24,134 nucleotides of DNA from positions 1 through 24,134 of IMG/VR virus record IMGVR_UViG_3300025684_000067, one strand, 5' to 3'. How positions within the stretch are numbered: the first letter of the stretch is position 1; every line of letters begins with the position of its first letter. Below the pieces are notes generated by a model. The model ran no database searches. It saw only the letters and a program-made list of their open reading frames with translations, and was not told the DNA's origin. Shown piece by piece: positions 1 to 23,891 of the stretch. Position numbers and translations under genes: made by a program. Source of the DNA: a virus.

Positions 1-1029
1 ACAGGCGCAGGCAAAACACTAATAACAGCCGCACTTAGTAGCAGTGTAGAAAAGTACGGGCGTAGTATTGTAGTTGTGCCTAACAAAAGTTTGGTTGTAC
101 AAACAGAAGAAGACTACATCAACTTGGGATTGGATGTGGGTGTTTACTTTGGTGACAGGAAAGAGTTTGGCAAAACACATACTATCTGTACGTGGCAAAG
201 TTTAAACAGCATGCTCAAGAACACAAAGAACGGAGTAGCACCTGTTACTATCGAAGCGTTCTTAGAAGATGTTATTTGTGTTATTATTGACGAAGTACAC
301 CAAGCAAAAGCTGACGCATTAAAAACACTATTAACAGGAGTAATGTCTAACATTCCTATTCGTTGGGGCTTGACTGGAACTATACCCAAAGAGAAACATG
401 AGTTTGCTAGTTTACATATAAGTTTAGGTGAAGTAGTAAATCAAATTGCTGCCAGCGAACTACAAGACATGGGTGTACTAGCACAATGTAACGTAAACAT
501 ATTACAAACACAGGACCACAAAGAGTACACCGAGTATCAACAAGAAATGCAGTATCTTGTTACAGACGATACACGCATACAATGGATGGCTGATCGCATT
601 AATGGTATTAAACAAAACGGCAATACTCTTATACTAGTAGACAGGATCAAAGCAGGAGAAAAACTACAAGAGTTAATCCCCGAAAGTGTTTTTGTTAAAG
701 GCGATGTTAAACTTAAAGATAGAAAAGATGCGTATGACGAAATCAAAGAAGGAACAAACCTGGTTATAATTGCTACTTACGGTGTTGCCGCTGTGGGCAT
801 TAACATCCCTCGTATTTTTAATTTGGTTCTTGTTGAGCCCGGAAAGAGCTTCGTTAGGGTAATTCAAAGTATTGGTCGCGGTATTCGTAAAGCCAAAGAC
901 AAGGACCATGTCGAAATCTGGGACATAACTAGTAGCTGTAAGTTTAGCAAGCGACATTTGACCAAACGGAAAGCTTTCTATAAAGAAGCAAACTATCCGT
1001 TTAAGGTTTATAAACTTAAAGAGTATTAA
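1..1029 (+). CDS. uvsW: UvsW-type superfamily 2 DNA helicase, 5'-truncated by window edge
   Basis: The open frame runs from base 1, so the N-terminus lies outside the window. The first visible codons encode TGAGKT, a Walker A motif. Downstream are a DEAH-like box (IIDEVHQAK), motif III (LTGT), and a C-terminal RecA-like lobe ending in motif VI (QSIGRGIRK). This order is that of SF2 helicases of the T4 UvsW family, which unwind branched DNA and R-loops in recombination-dependent replication. A GTG at 76 lies in frame but is after Walker A, so it is not the true start. About 343 residues are visible; T4 UvsW has about 500, so roughly the first third (the N-terminal DNA-binding domain) is missing. 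Family call is firm; the exact orthology to UvsW rather than another phage SF2 helicase is inferred from size and genome type. Confidence 0.9.
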   Translation, partial: TGAGKTLITAALSSSVEKYGRSIVVVPNKSLVVQTEEDYINLGLDVGVYFGDRKEFGKTHTICTWQSLNSMLKNTKNGVAPVTIEAFLEDVICVIIDEVHQAKADALKTLLTGVMSNIPIRWGLTGTIPKEKHEFASLHISLGEVVNQIAASELQDMGVLAQCNVNILQTQDHKEYTEYQQEMQYLVTDDTRIQWMADRINGIKQNGNTLILVDRIKAGEKLQELIPESVFVKGDVKLKDRKDAYDEIKEGTNLVIIATYGVAAVGINIPRIFNLVLVEPGKSFVRVIQSIGRGIRKAKDKDHVEIWDITSSCKFSKRHLTKRKAFYKEANYPFKVYKLKEY

Positions 1030-2816: not shown

Positions 2817-3242
2817 ATGTACCACAACATTAAAGAAGTAGAAACCGAAATAAAAACACTGTTGGAAAATTATCAACAGGCAGCAATGGGCACACATAGA
2901 GGTGCATATCCAGAAGTTAGCAAGATAACTCCTGTAGTTGAAGACGGTGTAATTTATTTACTACTCAGTGACTTGAGCAGACACACCGATAATATAAAAA
3001 GAAACCCAATAGTTACATTGTACTTTGCTGATAAAAACAAAAATCGTACACAAATGAATAACCCAAGACTTACATTATACGGTGTGTTGGAGAAAGTAAA
3101 AAAAACAGAAGAGGCATTAAAAAAGTTTGACAAACGTGATAAAGGTGCTAGTATGTACGGACAGTTTGGAGATTTTAACATCTATCAGTTTTCAGAAGAC
3201 GACAGACTGTATATCGCAGGCTTTGGAAAGGCTTACAAATGA
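2817..3242 (+). CDS. HugZ/PPOX-like FMN-binding split-barrel protein
   Basis: A 141-residue protein resembling the split-barrel domain of pyridoxamine 5'-phosphate-oxidase-like and HugZ/HutZ proteins. Visible motifs are a first strand pair (AAMGTHRGAYPEVSKITPVV), the segment LLLSDLSRHTDNIKRNPIVTLYF near residues 48-70 that is very HugZ-like (S-x-L-x-x-H-T-x-N), NNPRLTLYG near 81-89, and the C-terminal AGFGKAY resembling the GGFGxAY ending of HugZ. HugZ proteins bind heme or flavin and degrade heme; other relatives have different flavin roles. Only the barrel is present, without the extra C-terminal helical heme domain of full HugZ. The start has a weak ribosome site, and the gene is linked by ATGA to the next. 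The fold call is fairly firm; the substrate is unknown. Confidence 0.7.
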   Translation: MYHNIKEVETEIKTLLENYQQAAMGTHRGAYPEVSKITPVVEDGVIYLLLSDLSRHTDNIKRNPIVTLYFADKNKNRTQMNNPRLTLYGVLEKVKKTEEALKKFDKRDKGASMYGQFGDFNIYQFSEDDRLYIAGFGKAYK

Positions 3243-3629: not shown

Positions 3630-4193
3630 ATGGATATTGATATCGATAGTGCAGACAGAGAACGTATTCTTCAACTAATACGCAATGTTCCAGCAAGCAT
3701 ACATAGAAAAGACGAAATTGTAAAACACAACACTGGTGTGTATGTTACGGATATTCCAGTTGATCCTAGCACAGGGTTGTGTACTATTGATCACAAGCAA
3801 AGCGAAGCAATGGGATACATCAAGTTGGACTTTCTTAATGTTAACTTGTACGAGCGTGTCAATGACCATGCACACTTAGATCGTTTAATAAACACAGAGC
3901 CAGACTGGGATCGTCTTAATGATAGAAGTTTTGTAGAAAATATTATACATATTGGTAATCATTATGACACACTACATCGCATGCCTAAACCAACAAACAC
4001 TATTCCTAGAATGGCAATGTTATTAAGTGTAATACGCCCGGCTAAACGACATTTAATAGGACTGCCGTGGAACGAAGTAGCTAAAAGTGTATGGGGAAAA
4101 CCCGACGACGGTAGTTACTTCTTTAAGAAATCCCATGCAGTTGCTTACGCAACATTGGTAGCAGTTAATATAAACTTAGACTGTGGTGTTTAG
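3630..4193 (+). CDS. miniature DnaE-like (Pol III alpha-type) protein
   Basis: A 187-residue protein that carries, in order, segments resembling conserved motifs of bacterial DNA polymerase III alpha. These are DIDID at residues 2-6 (compare the PDIDxDF catalytic pair), HNTGVYVTDIP at 33-43 (compare the HxAGVVI region), GYIKLDFLN at 62-70 (compare GLVKFDFLG, which holds the third catalytic Asp), RMAMLLSVIRP near 127-137 (compare the A-x-x-RPG region), and FFKKSHAVAYATLVAVN at 164-180 (compare FxKSHAxAYAxIAYxT). DnaE spreads these over about 400 residues, so this is a strongly shortened version without PHP, thumb or OB domains. Similar proteins are known to me from cyanophages as hypothetical. 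Polymerase activity is not implied. It ends the early block and converges on the minus-strand gene. Confidence 0.7.
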   Translation: MDIDIDSADRERILQLIRNVPASIHRKDEIVKHNTGVYVTDIPVDPSTGLCTIDHKQSEAMGYIKLDFLNVNLYERVNDHAHLDRLINTEPDWDRLNDRSFVENIIHIGNHYDTLHRMPKPTNTIPRMAMLLSVIRPAKRHLIGLPWNEVAKSVWGKPDDGSYFFKKSHAVAYATLVAVNINLDCGV

Positions 4194-4540
4194 TCTAGTT
4201 TTCTAACTAGCTGTATATTTTTTCTTTTTGTTCGTTTTGTGCTTAACTCGTTGAGTCTAACACAATGCCCGCCGATTATTTCTACTTCTTTACTAATCAA
4301 TGTTTTGGCACAATATGCAAACGGTTTCCAATCATTCTTGAGAAAAATATTAATTGGAATCATTCTATTAGATTCCCACCACCATTGATCGGCAAGGCGG
4401 AGGAACTTGCTTTTATCCTCTTCGCGTAATGTATTATAGTCGTATATTGTCGTAACATCATTGTCTTGATTTTGTATTACACAAACATATTCTATATTAC
4501 TGTATTTGACAATTGCCAAGAACGGGTATTTTTCTAACAT
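4190..4540 (-). CDS. conserved marine T4-like phage protein, only minus-strand gene
   Basis: A 116-residue protein. Its stop codon overlaps that of the convergent DnaE-like gene. The sequence has a beta-rich N-terminus (FLAIVKYSNIEYVCVIQNQD), a conserved-looking centre (FLRLADQWWWESNRMIPINIFL) and a basic end (KRTKRKNIQLVRKL). This WWWESN-x-x-(I/L)PI pattern with a terminal IQLV is one I know from T4-like cyanophages, without function. It is soluble, with no catalytic motif. It must have its own promoter in 4541-4600, where the sequence is very AT-rich, but I see no convincing -35 for it. Being antisense to the early transcript it might also influence read-through of the upstream block. Confidence 0.8.
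   Translation of the reverse strand: MLEKYPFLAIVKYSNIEYVCVIQNQDNDVTTIYDYNTLREEDKSKFLRLADQWWWESNRMIPINIFLKNDWKPFAYCAKTLISKEVEIIGGHCVRLNELSTKRTKRKNIQLVRKLD
4195..4229 (+). terminator. possible terminator after the early block
   Basis: Inverted repeat CTAGTT at 4195-4200 and AACTAG at 4205-4210 with a TTCT loop, followed after seven bases by a T-rich run at 4218-4229. It lies just after the stop of the DnaE-like gene, but inside the 3' end of the convergent minus-strand gene. The stem is short and AT-rich and the T run is offset, so this is weak. Confidence 0.3.
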
Positions 4541-6048: not shown

Positions 6049-6077
6049 TTGACAGACTATTTTAGTTCTGTTAATAT
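6049..6077 (+). promoter_or_regulatory. sigma70-like early promoter for primase
   Basis: A perfect TTGACA at 6049-6054, a 17-base spacer and TAATAT at 6072-6077 (an overlapping TATAAT lies at 6075-6080 but would give a 20-base spacer). Transcription is predicted to start at about 6084, one base before the ATG at 6085. Confidence 0.65.
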
Positions 6078-6084
6078 AATACAG

Positions 6085-7086
6085 ATGAATACTATACAAC
6101 AATCATTATTAGATGTATTGCCACTGAAGCGCAAGCAAGCCAGTAAAGGCTGGCTTAGTTTCAATGCTCCGTGTTGCACGTATCAAAGCGAAACGCCCGA
6201 CACAAGAAGCCGCGGCGGTGTGATGTTTACTCCCGAAGGTGGCTTTAGTTATCATTGTTTTAATTGTAACTTTAAAACTGGATGGCAACCAGGTAGGCAC
6301 TTGGGCTTTAAGGCCAGGAACTTGTTTAGTTGGTTTAACATGCCGTATGATCAAATACAAGTATTGGTATTTGATGCAATGCGTAATGTTGATCGAGAAA
6401 TAGTTCAACAAGAGTTTAAGAAAAAAAGTAAAACATTTAAACCAGTTGAACTACCGGAGTGTGCTCCGTTGAATGAATTAATAGCAGCAGGTGCACAAGA
6501 TATTGACAAGGACATTGCCAGGATATATAGTTTTATACAAGAACGAGGTTTTAGTATTGACGATTATAACTGGCAATGGAGCCCAGATACAACCAATGGT
6601 ATGAACAAAAGAGTAATTATACCTTATGTGTGGCAAGGAAAAACAATTGGATATACAGCTAGAAGTACAATTAATGGCAGCAAATTAAAATACTTTAATC
6701 AAGTTGATAGTGACTATGTGTTTAACACTGACGCACAGACGCATGAACGAGAATTTGTGTTGGTTACTGAAGGTCCATTGGACGGAATAGCAGTTGGCGG
6801 AGTTGCAGTGTTGACTAACGAAGTTAGCGAAAATAAAGCAGAGATTATTGAAAGTCTGGGCAAACGTGTAATTGTTGTGCCTGACAGAGACAAAAGTGGA
6901 TTAAAGCTAATTGATGCAGCATTGCAGTATGGGTGGAGTGTAAGTTTTCCATTATGGGAAACTGATATTAAAGATTGTGCAGATGCATATAAGCGTTACG
7001 GTAAATTGTATACACTAAGAAGTATACTTCAAGAAGTCGAAAGTAGTGATTTAAAGATTAAATTGCGATCTCGAGAGTTGGTCTAA
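6085..7086 (+). CDS. 61: gp61-type DNA primase
   Basis: A 333-residue primase, close to the 342 of T4 gp61. An N-terminal zinc-ribbon region has NAPCC near residues 28-31 and YHCFNCNF near 57-63, the typical Cys pattern of phage primases. The central region contains a TOPRIM-like core: VLVTEGPLDGIAVGG carries the catalytic Glu and VVPDRDKSG the metal-binding DxD. It makes RNA primers for lagging-strand synthesis, working with the gp41-type helicase encoded next. I choose ATG 6085 and not the TTG at 6049, because that TTG is the -35 box and the conserved N-terminus begins at MNTIQQSLLDVL. No Shine-Dalgarno precedes the ATG, consistent with a leaderless message. Confidence 0.9.
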   Translation: MNTIQQSLLDVLPLKRKQASKGWLSFNAPCCTYQSETPDTRSRGGVMFTPEGGFSYHCFNCNFKTGWQPGRHLGFKARNLFSWFNMPYDQIQVLVFDAMRNVDREIVQQEFKKKSKTFKPVELPECAPLNELIAAGAQDIDKDIARIYSFIQERGFSIDDYNWQWSPDTTNGMNKRVIIPYVWQGKTIGYTARSTINGSKLKYFNQVDSDYVFNTDAQTHEREFVLVTEGPLDGIAVGGVAVLTNEVSENKAEIIESLGKRVIVVPDRDKSGLKLIDAALQYGWSVSFPLWETDIKDCADAYKRYGKLYTLRSILQEVESSDLKIKLRSRELV

Positions 7087-7098
7087 TAAAGGATTACA

Positions 7099-8490
7099 AT
7101 GACAAAAGATTATAGTATTGACTTACAAAAACTATTTTTAGAAATTATGTTAGCAGACGCTCAGTGTTTTGTACGTGTGCAAAACATCTTTGACAGTATC
7201 AATTTTGACCGTAGTTTAAAAGCCCCGGCAGATTTTATCAATAACTATAGCAAAAAGTACACAGACCTTCCTGATGTAAATCAAATACATGCTGAAACAG
7301 GCGCTACACTGCAAAAATTAGATAATGTAGATGATGCTACTACTGAATGGTTTATGGACGAGTTTGAAAGTTTTACAAGACACGAGACACTCAAGAGGGT
7401 AATTCTTGAAAGTGCTGACTTGATTGAAAAAGGCGAGTATGACCCAATTGAGAAACTAGTAAAAGATGCAGTACAAATTAGTCTAACACGAGACTTAGGA
7501 GTTGATTACTTTGCTGATCCTAGAACACGATTAGAAGAAATCAAAGACAATAACGGCCAAATGACCACAGGATGGCCTAGCTTGGACAGGAAATTGTTCG
7601 GCGGATGGAACAGGGGCGAATTAGAAATCTTCGCAGGCGGCTCTGGCTCGGGTAAAAGTTTGTTTATGCAAAATCTCGCAGTTAACATGATGCAAGCCGG
7701 TAAAAACGGTGCATACATTACACTAGAACTTAGTGAAAACTTGTGTAGTATGCGTATTGACTCAATGACAACAGGCATTGCAACTAACAAGATCTTTAAA
7801 AATCTTGACGAGGTTGAAATGAAAGTTAAAATGATGGGCAAGAAAAGCGGCAACTTGCGTATTAAATATATGCCTGCACAAAGCACGGTTAATGATATTA
7901 GAAGTTATCTCAAAGAATTGCAAATCAAAGATGGAGTGTCGTGTGATTATATTTGTGTAGACTACTTGGATCTATTAATGCCAGTTAGTGCTAAAGTTAG
8001 TCCGAGTGATTTGTTTGTTAAAGACAAATATGTATCAGAAGAATTGCGCAACTTAGCAAAAGAACTAGACATTGTTCTTATTACAGCATCGCAGTTGAAT
8101 CGTAGCAGTGTTGAAGAAGTTGAATTTGATCATAGTCATATTTCTGGCGGCATTAGTAAGATAAATACAGCAGACAACGTGTTTGGTATCTTTACAAGTA
8201 GAGCAATGCGTGAAACTGGACGCTATCAACTACAGTTAATGAAGACACGTAGTAGTAGTGGAGTAGGACAAAAAGTTGATTTGACGTTTGACATTGAAAG
8301 CTTGCGTATTTTAGATGCAGAAGATCAGGATGATTATACTCCTGGACCAAGTAGTAGTAATATTATGGATAAACTTAAAAAGAAGTCTGTAGTTAGCAAT
8401 AGTAAACCTACAGAGCATACTCCTAAAATAAAAGCAGAAGTACAAACCACTGCACTAAAGAGCATGCTTGACAATTTGAAAGGTAATTAG
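7099..8490 (+). CDS. 41: gp41-type replicative DNA helicase (DnaB-like)
   Basis: A 463-residue DnaB-family helicase, near the 475 of T4 gp41. The N-terminal domain (1-140) is helical. The RecA-like motor begins around TGWPSLDRKLFGGWNRGEL. Walker A is GGSGSGKS at 180-187, followed by an arginine-rich DnaB-type segment. Walker B is YICVDYLDLL near 284-293. Later motifs include LVITASQLNRSS-like DIVLITASQLNRSS and the sensor ISGGISKINTADNVFGI. It forms the hexameric 5'-3' helicase that drives the replication fork. It follows the primase by 12 bases with an AAAGGAT ribosome site, so the two form a primosome operon. The end (GPSSSNIMDK onward) is a low-complexity tail. Confidence 0.95.
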   Translation: MTKDYSIDLQKLFLEIMLADAQCFVRVQNIFDSINFDRSLKAPADFINNYSKKYTDLPDVNQIHAETGATLQKLDNVDDATTEWFMDEFESFTRHETLKRVILESADLIEKGEYDPIEKLVKDAVQISLTRDLGVDYFADPRTRLEEIKDNNGQMTTGWPSLDRKLFGGWNRGELEIFAGGSGSGKSLFMQNLAVNMMQAGKNGAYITLELSENLCSMRIDSMTTGIATNKIFKNLDEVEMKVKMMGKKSGNLRIKYMPAQSTVNDIRSYLKELQIKDGVSCDYICVDYLDLLMPVSAKVSPSDLFVKDKYVSEELRNLAKELDIVLITASQLNRSSVEEVEFDHSHISGGISKINTADNVFGIFTSRAMRETGRYQLQLMKTRSSSGVGQKVDLTFDIESLRILDAEDQDDYTPGPSSSNIMDKLKKKSVVSNSKPTEHTPKIKAEVQTTALKSMLDNLKGN

Positions 8491-9477
8491 ATGAGTTGCC
8501 CAGATGCATTCAATTGTTTAAATGTAGAAGCTAAAGATGATGAAACTTACATTAGTTCGTGTTGTGTTATGCCATCTTGGAAAGTAGAAAATATTGATTT
8601 TATTAACGACGAAAATTTCAAAAGAATTAGAGAACAATGGAATAATGGCGAATGGCCGGATGAATGTAGTTATTGTAAAACCGTTGAAGACCGCGGAGAT
8701 AGAAGTCGTAGACACGGCTCAATTGAGTGGGAAGAAAGAAACATAAATGACGGTGTTGATTACACTGATAAAATTTTGAAGATAGACTATTGGACAGGAA
8801 ATAATTGCAATCTAAGATGTGCCATTTGCGGTCCTCGTTTTAGTATTGCGTGGCAAAAAGAATTAGGTATAGAAAAACAAAAAAGAGTAACACAAACCAA
8901 TAAATTTTGGAAAACCATTGATGTTGATGAAGTGAGATGGGTACATTTTAACGGAGGCGAACCTATGTTAGTTGACGAACACTGGGAGTTACTTAAAAAG
9001 ATTAAAAACAAAGAGAATGTAGTTTTAAATTACAACACTAATGCAAGTGTCCTGCCAAAGCCCGAACTAGTTGATCTATGGAGTCAATTTAAGTTAGTGT
9101 CACTAGACTTTAGTATTGACGATATTGGTAAAAGATTCGAATATCAACGCTATCCGGCAAAATGGGAAAAGATAGTTGAAAATTTATTTTGGTTTAGAGA
9201 ACAGATGCCGGTTAATGTGATGTTTGGAGTAAACAGTGCTTTGGGTATTTTGAATTATAATAACTATCCTCATTTAAAAAACTGGTTTAATGAAAATTTT
9301 AGTACTAATAGAGTAACTGATCCGGTTAGGTTAGTATGGCAGTCAACTGATGGAATTCTTAGTAAGGATGTTAAAGATAAACGTAAAGTAGTAGAATATT
9401 TAAACCGATTGGACAAGCGGAGAGGCAGCAATTGGAGAGAAACGTTCCCAGAATTAATAGACTTTTTATATAATTGA
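8491..9477 (+). CDS. radical SAM protein of the twitch-domain type
   Basis: A 328-residue protein starting directly after the helicase stop. CNLRCAIC (Cys 106, 110, 113) is the radical SAM CxxxCxxC cluster motif, and FNGGEPML (about 153-160) is the GGEP SAM-binding motif. Upstream, CC at 24-25 and CSYC at 59-62 resemble the additional N-terminal Cys region that precedes the radical SAM core in the twitch/SPASM-like proteins frequent in marine phage genomes. The enzyme should hold one 4Fe-4S cluster for the 5'-deoxyadenosyl radical and perhaps a second auxiliary cluster. Substrate is unknown; modification of a peptide, protein or nucleotide is possible. Co-transcription with primase and helicase is implied by the zero spacing. 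Confidence 0.85.
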   Translation: MSCPDAFNCLNVEAKDDETYISSCCVMPSWKVENIDFINDENFKRIREQWNNGEWPDECSYCKTVEDRGDRSRRHGSIEWEERNINDGVDYTDKILKIDYWTGNNCNLRCAICGPRFSIAWQKELGIEKQKRVTQTNKFWKTIDVDEVRWVHFNGGEPMLVDEHWELLKKIKNKENVVLNYNTNASVLPKPELVDLWSQFKLVSLDFSIDDIGKRFEYQRYPAKWEKIVENLFWFREQMPVNVMFGVNSALGILNYNNYPHLKNWFNENFSTNRVTDPVRLVWQSTDGILSKDVKDKRKVVEYLNRLDKRRGSNWRETFPELIDFLYN

Positions 9478-22919: not shown

Positions 22920-23891
22920 ATGTTTAGATTTTTTACAGAGAAGAAATGGCTTCTATGGTCATGGCTAGGAAGTATTGCAATTTTGAGTTCGTTGTGGATT
23001 CAAGTTAAAATTGATGTTAAAATCAACGAATGGTTCGGGTCGTTTTACGATATGATTCAACGTGCACTAGCAGAACCTAATGCAATCACTGCCGCAGAAT
23101 ACTGGAAAGGATTATTTGATTTTTTCTGGCTTGCTGGAATTTATGTTGCAATTGCAGTTGCAGTAAGTTTCTTTACCGCACACTATTTGTTCCGTTGGAG
23201 AGCAAGTATGGTAGAATGGTATCACAGTGTGTATGACAAAGCCCGCACAATTGAAGGCGCAGCACAGCGTGTACAAGAAGATACTATTAAGTTTAGTAGA
23301 ATTATGGAAAGTTTAGGAACAAGTTTTATTGAATCGATCATGGTTCTAGTACAGTTTGTTCCGATTCTACTAGGTCTGAGTGTAGGTATTCCGATCTTCT
23401 TCTTTGGTGATTGGCAGTATGGGCTTGTCACTGGTGCACTTGTTTGGAGTATTGGTGGAACTATTTTCCTAGTACTACTAGGATGGCTTTTGCGTCTAGT
23501 TGGCGTTGAATACGACCTTCAGAAAAAAGAAGCAGCATATCGTAAGATTCTAGTTATTGCTGAAGATAATAAAAAAGTGCGTCCAAAAAAAATTAACGAG
23601 TTGTTTGAAGATGTACGTGGGATTCACTTTAAAAGTTACTTGCGTTATCTTTATTTCAATATTGGGCGTGTTGCATACTTGCAGGCAAACGTGCTAAGTG
23701 CTTATGTATTTTTAGCACCAGCAATTATTGCAGGTGTAGTTACGTTAGGTGTAATGCAGCAAATTATTAGAGCATTTGGTCGAGTTGAAGGATCGATGCA
23801 ATATTTGCTCAAAGCATGGCCAACAATCATCGAACTGTTAAGTGTGTTTAAACGTTTAAGAGAGTTTGAACAACAAATAAAAGATAAATAA
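22920..23891 (+). CDS. sbmA: SbmA/BacA-type peptide transporter, N-terminally short
   Basis: A 323-residue membrane protein matching E. coli SbmA/BacA in distinctive places: HYLFRWRASM near 88-97, IEGAAQRVQEDT at 111-122, AAYRKILVIAED near 205-216, YLYFNIGRVAYLQ near 243-255 and TLGVMQQI with FGRVEGSMQYLL beyond. Hydrophobic helices lie around 10-28, 66-86, 135-155, 165-182 and 255-280. SbmA (406 residues) imports antibiotic peptides such as microcin B17 and proline-rich peptides, as a homodimer driven by proton gradient. The phage protein begins about 85-90 residues later, so it lacks the first helices. It follows the nrd cluster by one base. The role for the phage is unknown. Confidence 0.9.
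   Translation: MFRFFTEKKWLLWSWLGSIAILSSLWIQVKIDVKINEWFGSFYDMIQRALAEPNAITAAEYWKGLFDFFWLAGIYVAIAVAVSFFTAHYLFRWRASMVEWYHSVYDKARTIEGAAQRVQEDTIKFSRIMESLGTSFIESIMVLVQFVPILLGLSVGIPIFFFGDWQYGLVTGALVWSIGGTIFLVLLGWLLRLVGVEYDLQKKEAAYRKILVIAEDNKKVRPKKINELFEDVRGIHFKSYLRYLYFNIGRVAYLQANVLSAYVFLAPAIIAGVVTLGVMQQIIRAFGRVEGSMQYLLKAWPTIIELLSVFKRLREFEQQIKDK

What the first reader, a model, noticed from the sequence alone, without database searches (positions are those of the whole stretch)
3630..4193. Miniaturised DnaE-like protein that keeps several Pol III alpha motifs in order
Seen: within 187 residues the protein has DIDID (2-6), HNTGVYVTDIP (33-43), GYIKLDFLN (62-70), RMAMLLSVIRP (127-137) and KKSHAVAYATLV (166-177). 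Known: DnaE has PDIDxDF, an HxAGVVI region, KFDFLG with the third catalytic Asp, an RPG region and KSHAxAYA, in the same order over roughly 400 residues. Inference: the gene is a compacted Pol III alpha palm/fingers core, perhaps a small polymerase, a DNA-binding decoy or an inhibitor of host replication. Phages of this type already have their own polymerase family, so the protein is odd.
Basis: partly seen in the sequence, partly recalled or inferred. Interest (0 to 1): 0.75.

Follow-up and report, generated by a model that had tools for sequence, protein, structure and literature searches.

The report
Half of a split mini polymerase
This phage gene encodes the metal-binding half of a very small bacterial-type DNA polymerase whose other half sits in a distant gene of the same kind of giant phage; the split was described in 2021, but nobody seems to have tested whether the pieces make a working enzyme.

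Summary
Window 3630-4193 encodes a 187-aa protein with five DnaE-like motifs in DnaE order, and the resemblance is true homology: PHROG 11778 'DNA polymerase' at 1e-55, a full-length DnaE family at 3.9e-6, four collinear profile matches, and an AlphaFold model (pLDDT 95) that overlays residues 1-187 on E. coli DnaE 401-778. D2, D4 and D67 fall on the catalytic triad (D401, D403, D555) and are invariant in 120 relatives.

The protein is not a complete mini-polymerase. It starts exactly at the catalytic strand and lacks the preceding GS (dNTP-binding) motif. That motif is carried by a separate ~170-aa protein which ends at DnaE residue 393 and is encoded elsewhere in nearly every related large genome checked. 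These phages also carry a family B polymerase.

This is the 'split minimal Pol III alpha' of Iyer et al. 2021 (PMC7824862), of which the window protein is a new member. Best explanation: the two halves assemble into a ~40-kDa, thumbless, Pol-beta-like polymerase or nucleotidyltransferase that assists the family B replicase. Assembly and activity are inferred, not shown. Decoy or host-inhibitor ideas have no support.

The parts
3630..4193 (+). C-unit of split minimal Pol III alpha, 187 aa plus stop
   Evidence: PHROG 11778 1e-55; AlphaFold pLDDT 95.0; aligned to E. coli DnaE 401-778, Z 8.4, and PolC 972-1293, Z 9.6
3633..3647 (+). DIDID (residues 2-6): first two catalytic aspartates, D2 and D4 = E. 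coli D401 and D403
   Evidence: D2, D4, D6 invariant in 120 sequences; chain ranges of the fold alignment start at 401
3726..3758 (+). HNTGVYVTDIP (residues 33-43), counterpart of DnaE HxAGVVI at the return to the palm
   Evidence: H33 and G36 invariant; profile alignment to DnaE 504-569
3813..3839 (+). GYIKLDFLN (residues 62-70): K65 and third catalytic aspartate D67 = E. coli D555
   Evidence: K65 and D67 invariant in 120 sequences; phrog_405 and hhalign match
4008..4040 (+). RMAMLLSVIRP (residues 127-137), counterpart of the DnaE RPG region in the fingers
   Evidence: R136 and P137 invariant; weak but collinear profile match at DnaE 618-632
4125..4160 (+). KKSHAVAYATLV (residues 166-177), counterpart of DnaE NKSHAxAYA
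   Evidence: K166, H169 and Y173 invariant; profile match at DnaE 726-756
4190..4540 (-). Convergent neighbour ORF of unknown function (116 aa, phrog_11637); its 3' end overlaps that of the C-unit
   Evidence: phrog_11637 1e-29; a minus-strand ORF in this place in 129 of 149 related loci, 119 of them similar to this one; also in RaK2, Phosso, Cassandra, Vibrio, Atu_ph07 and Alishewanella phages. Neighbour, not shown to be part of the polymerase
76..1029 (+). UvsW-type helicase (cut at the window edge), upstream replication/recombination neighbour
   Evidence: Pfam Helicase_C 2.9e-8 and ResIII 2.3e-6; same order in RaK2
6049..7086 (+). Primase (gp61-like) in the position of the RaK2 and Phosso primase
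   Evidence: No Pfam match; assigned by position
7099..8490 (+). DnaB/gp41-type replicative helicase
   Evidence: Pfam DnaB_C 3e-23; same order

Best explanation
The gene encodes the C-terminal half of a minimal, split DNA polymerase III alpha. It supplies the three metal-binding aspartates, the second palm segment and a cut-down fingers. A separate phage gene supplies the other half: the first palm segment with the GS motif that holds the triphosphate. The two proteins are inferred to assemble without covalent joining into one Pol-beta-type active site of about 357 residues in all, with no PHP, thumb or clamp-binding parts. Such an enzyme would be distributive; the most likely job is short synthesis or gap filling beside the phage's family B replicase. 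Shown: homology, domain boundaries, co-occurrence of the halves in relatives, invariant catalytic residues, purifying selection, replication-gene neighbours. Inferred: assembly, catalysis, the gap-filling role, and that the window's own virus has the N-unit (the 24-kb window is a fragment and does not show it).
For: C-unit starts at DnaE residue 401 and N-unit ends at 393, without overlap. The active-site motif is cut between the GS motif and the aspartates, so neither half can be active alone, yet both motifs are invariant: D2, D4, D67 in 120 C-units and GRGSS in 68 N-units. N-unit present in all the largest records that carry the C-unit. Median dN/dS 0.062 and 0.067. Replication-gene neighbours in diverse phages. 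Split phage enzymes that reassemble are known, including a split gp43 (PMC2988022).
Against: No interaction or activity shown. The two genes are never neighbours. One 289-kb contig had N only and one unverified 109-kb record had C only. The thumb and the fingers segments YQEQVM and LRRAMGKK of DnaE are absent, which makes templated synthesis less sure. Foldseek E-values alone are modest, 1.3e-3 at best.
Confidence: 0.65

Rival explanations
1. The two halves form a complex that uses the Pol-beta-type site for something other than templated DNA synthesis, such as untemplated end addition or transfer of a nucleotide to another molecule.
For: The catalytic site is complete across the two halves, while the thumb and the DnaE fingers segments YQEQVM/LRRAMGKK are gone. 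Other members of this superfold do untemplated transfer (general knowledge).
Against: Parts of the fingers that have no catalytic aspartate are still conserved: the IRP-K region and KxxHxxxY. The genes sit with primase, helicase and clamp loader.
Confidence: 0.2
2. The pair is a catalytically silent accessory of the replisome, for example a scaffold or dNTP sensor that helps the family B polymerase.
For: A family B replicase is present in 12 of 13 large records, so a second polymerase is not strictly needed.
Against: All three aspartates, K65 and the GS motif are invariant, which an inactive scaffold would not need.
Confidence: 0.1
3. The protein is a decoy or inhibitor of the host replicase.
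For: It resembles a piece of the host enzyme.
Against: It is aligned only to the catalytic stretch 401-778 of DnaE, not to the clamp- and tau-binding C-terminus. It is conserved in a replication cluster in phages of many different hosts. Its counterpart half is another conserved phage gene.
Confidence: 0.03
4. A decaying remnant of a captured DnaE with no function.
For: Much shorter than DnaE; the CBB paper called one half truncated.
Against: Median dN/dS 0.062, never above 0.14 in 127 pairs; at least 597 contigs encode it; invariant catalytic residues.
Confidence: 0.01

Closest known systems
Split minimal Pol III alpha of group 2.2 jumbo phages (Iyer et al. 2021, PMC7824862); PHROG 11778; e.g. 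RaK2 ORF124 (C) with ORF162 (N), Cassandra_0017 with Cassandra_0087
   Same: Same C-unit along its whole length (35-48% identity to the window protein), same catalytic residues, same neighbours, same separate N-unit gene, family B polymerase in the genome
   Different: The window member begins at the catalytic strand itself (MDIDID), without the 4-10 residue lead of most relatives; its own N-unit lies outside the 24-kb fragment
Bacterial DNA polymerase III alpha (DnaE) and PolC, family C
   Same: Palm fold, three aspartates, HxxG, KxDFL, RP and KSHAxAY regions in order
   Different: No PHP, GS motif, thumb, YQEQVM/LRRAMGKK fingers segment or C-terminal domains in this chain; 187 aa against about 1,140
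Compact contiguous DnaE of some large phage contigs (578-582 aa; L088, L285)
   Same: Phage-borne, without room for an N-terminal PHP domain, has GS motif and PDIDxDF
   Different: GS and aspartates in one chain, longer thumb and fingers; occurs beside the split pair in two contigs
Pol beta / family X
   Same: Same nucleotidyltransferase superfold as Pol III alpha and similar total size when the halves are summed (general knowledge)
   Different: No sequence or fold match to family X appeared in the lists; matches are to Pol III alpha and PolC
Split phage enzymes: Aeh1 NrdA and split gp43 (43A/43B) of Aeromonas phages (PMC2988022)
   Same: One enzyme encoded as two chains that reassemble
   Different: Those arose by insertion between the two pieces of one gene; here the two genes are far apart and no intervening element is seen

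Membership tests
Split minimal Pol III alpha (Iyer et al. 2021) | Short stand-alone protein with the Mg2+-binding C-terminal part of the Pol III alpha core | tested here: met
   187 aa, aligned to E. coli DnaE 401-778 with D2, D4, D67 on the triad
Split minimal Pol III alpha (Iyer et al. 2021) | Separate N-terminal NTP-binding protein encoded at a distance in the same genome | tested here: inconclusive
   Met in relatives; the window is a 24-kb fragment without it
Split minimal Pol III alpha (Iyer et al. 2021) | Family B polymerase in the same genome | tested here: inconclusive
   12 of 13 large relatives have PF00136; not visible in the fragment
Split minimal Pol III alpha (Iyer et al. 2021) | Member of the described protein family (PHROG 11778) | tested here: met
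   1e-55 over residues 1-183
Split minimal Pol III alpha (Iyer et al. 2021) | Polymerase activity on reconstitution (proposed, never a tested feature) | not testable with these tools
   Needs a bench assay; no experimental report found
Family C DNA polymerase (DnaE/PolC), complete enzyme | Three catalytic aspartates in palm context | tested here: met
   D2, D4, D67 invariant in 120 sequences; fold match
Family C DNA polymerase (DnaE/PolC), complete enzyme | GS (dNTP-binding) motif in the same chain | tested here: not met
   Chain begins after it; the motif is in the separate N-unit
Family C DNA polymerase (DnaE/PolC), complete enzyme | PHP, thumb and C-terminal clamp-binding/OB parts | tested here: not met
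   187 aa in all, aligned only to DnaE 401-778, with 26 residues between DIDID and HNTG where DnaE has the thumb

The most novel reading that the evidence does not exclude
A heterodimeric, thumbless family C enzyme of about 40 kDa, possibly the smallest Pol III-type polymerase, working as a dedicated gap-filling or repair polymerase beside a family B replicase in a large group of giant phages.
Probability: 0.35. Interest if true: 0.72.

Novelty: new member of a known kind. Interest (0 to 1): 0.45.

Why it matters
If the two halves work together, they define how little a Pol III-type active site needs: no thumb, no PHP and only part of the fingers. They would also show that a widespread group of giant phages runs two unrelated polymerase families at once. 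The pair is small, conserved in many sequenced phages of laboratory bacteria and should be easy to express, so the 2021 proposal is directly testable. The exact break between the GS motif and the aspartate strand also bears on whether the split form came from DnaE by fission and loss or is an old, simple form, as Iyer et al. suggested.

Tried and rejected
Pfam and PDB sequence searches with the single protein gave nothing useful, nor did a PDB search with the C-unit profile; DnaE-like profile families and folds were needed. I looked for fused or neighbouring N and C genes in the fetched loci (5-10 kb flanks) and found none. A trans-splicing split intein was considered: the N-unit ends at FLK and most C-units start within about ten residues of DIDID, which leaves no room for intein halves. 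A pseudogene or truncation remnant was rejected on dN/dS about 0.06 and invariant residues. A DnaQ-type exonuclease next to uvsW, as annotated in RaK2, was not seen by eye upstream in the contig closest to the window. My first DnaE reference alignment contained one wrong ORF, an elongation factor (seen); it was rebuilt without it and the match became stronger. A viral-contig scan with a megaphage DnaE found no relatives. Family X polymerases did not appear among the fold matches, which does not exclude a similarity. Co-folding of the two halves and residue coupling between them could not be run.

Full report
OBSERVATION. The ORF at 3630-4193 (+) is real: 187 aa, ATG start directly after an in-frame stop, TAG end. 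The five motifs are at the residues stated. PHROG 11778 ('DNA polymerase', 197 positions) matches residues 1-183 at 1e-55, and the DnaE-like families phrog_405, phrog_12219 and phrog_11165 match the HxxG-KxDFL and KSHAxAY parts at 3.9e-6 to 0.011. Pfam and PDB sequence searches with the single sequence are silent.

HOMOLOGY TO POL III ALPHA. A profile of 120 relatives aligned against a set of DnaE proteins (bacterial, phage and plasmid) gives four separate matches, all in order: the DIDID region to profile positions 396-416, HNTG..KLDFLN to 504-569, the IRP region to 618-632 and the KKSHAVAY region to 726-756. Only the second (E 4e-5) and fourth (3.5e-4) are convincing on their own; the order of all four carries the rest. 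The first, second and fourth also appear in order in several single DnaE sequences. AlphaFold2 on the window protein with this alignment gives pLDDT 95.0 and pTM 0.84. Structural alignment finds Pol III alpha and PolC first and almost alone: PolC 3f2b Z 9.6 (182 residues, 3.3 A, chain 972-1293), Taq 3e0d Z 9.5 (462-835), E. coli 2hnh Z 8.4 (180 residues, 3.5 A, 401-778); the next unrelated chain has Z 3.3. Foldseek alone is weaker (best E 1.3e-3). By these alignments D2, D4 and D67 correspond to E. coli D401, D403 and D555 (residue roles from general knowledge of DnaE). D2, D4, D6, K65, D67, H33, G36, R136, P137, K139, H169 and Y173 are invariant in all 120 aligned relatives. Only two contig-end fragments (L217, L185) were left out for want of the DIDID stretch.

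IT IS A HALF, AND THE OTHER HALF EXISTS. The protein starts at the catalytic strand, so the GS (dNTP-binding) motif that precedes it in DnaE is missing. Searching PF07733 in the large records that carry the gene finds, far away in each, a short protein of about 170 aa with GxGRGSS that stops at FLK or FLN. It is annotated 'DNA polymerase' or 'DnaE-like' in RaK2 (ORF162, near gp44), Cassandra_0087 and Phosso, and matches the truncated alpha reported for CBB. Its profile matches Taq Pol III alpha 380-455 and E. coli 320-393. Its model (pLDDT 89.7) aligns over residues 71-170 with E. coli DnaE 279-393 and M. tuberculosis 307-413, Z about 10-12. So the N-unit ends at DnaE 393 and the C-unit begins at 401: the split falls between the GS motif and the aspartate strand, without overlap. 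GRGSS is invariant in 68 N-units.

CO-OCCURRENCE. 63 records of the phage collection hold the C-unit. The N-unit of RaK2 also finds 63, and a second N-unit query lists the same phages plus further records, probably weaker hits to true DnaE. Not every row of these lists could be printed, so the overlap is stated as near-complete rather than exact. Alishewanella phage Slicko01 (141 kb), absent from the printed N-unit rows, has both. Among the large viral contigs searched, one of 289 kb had N only, and one unverified 109-kb Klebsiella record had C only; the others had both. The two genes were never on one fetched locus and no fusion was seen. A family B polymerase is present in 12 of 13 large records.

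SELECTION AND NEIGHBOURHOOD. Median dN/dS is 0.062 for the C-unit (127 pairs) and 0.067 for the N-unit (99 pairs). The gene lies between uvsW and primase-helicase (gp61, gp41) in the window and in RaK2, Phosso and Cassandra. Directly downstream is a convergent small ORF of unknown function, conserved in most related loci.

WHAT IS LOST. 26 residues separate DIDID from HNTG, where DnaE has the thumb; and about 20 residues separate RPAKRHLIG from KKSHAVAY, where DnaE has about 90-100 including the YQEQVM and LRRAMGKK segments. N plus C make about 357 residues, close to Pol beta (size from general knowledge). From this I infer a small, distributive, Pol-beta-like enzyme rather than a replicase; whether it copies a template is open.

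LITERATURE. Iyer et al. 2021 (PMC7824862) describe this arrangement: in group 2.2 jumbo phages the family B polymerase is accompanied by a 'phage-specific minimal version' of Pol III alpha, split into an N-terminal NTP-binding and a C-terminal Mg2+- and template-binding protein from distant genes, perhaps cooperating in synthesis of one strand or in repair. The CBB and Atu_ph07 papers had each noted a Pol III alpha-like protein. I found no experimental test in the papers held. Precedents for reassembly of split phage enzymes exist, including a split gp43 (PMC2988022).

VERDICT. Observation confirmed; interpretation partly right; a new member of a described but untested kind. Interest moderate: the arrangement is strange and testable, but it is already in print.

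Noticed in passing
window 22920-23891 (+): A full-length SbmA/BacA-type peptide transporter (Pfam PF05992, 1.3e-135) in a T4-like phage fragment; at least 220 IMG/VR contigs carry relatives (the listed 80 are 84-94% identical), while the annotated phage collection has almost none. Why phages would carry it is unexplained.
   Followed up: partly
window 4190-4540 (-), and related loci: A small ORF of unknown function (phrog_11637) runs convergent to the C-unit with overlapping 3' ends; it is kept in 129 of 149 related loci and in RaK2, Phosso, Cassandra, Vibrio, Atu_ph07 and Alishewanella phages.
   Followed up: partly
L088:520-2253 (-) in G003 and L285 in G022: Contiguous compact DnaE-like proteins of 578-582 aa with GS motif and PDIDxDF but no room for an N-terminal PHP domain, in two large phage contigs that also carry the split pair. 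In G003 (167 kb, may be partial or mixed) no family B polymerase was found.
   Followed up: partly
window 2817-3242 (+): A PNPOx/CREG-type flavin-binding-like protein (Pfam 8.7e-10 and 1.2e-9) in the replication cluster.
   Followed up: no
window 8491-9477 (+): A radical SAM protein (Pfam 1.7e-10) directly downstream of the replicative helicase.
   Followed up: no
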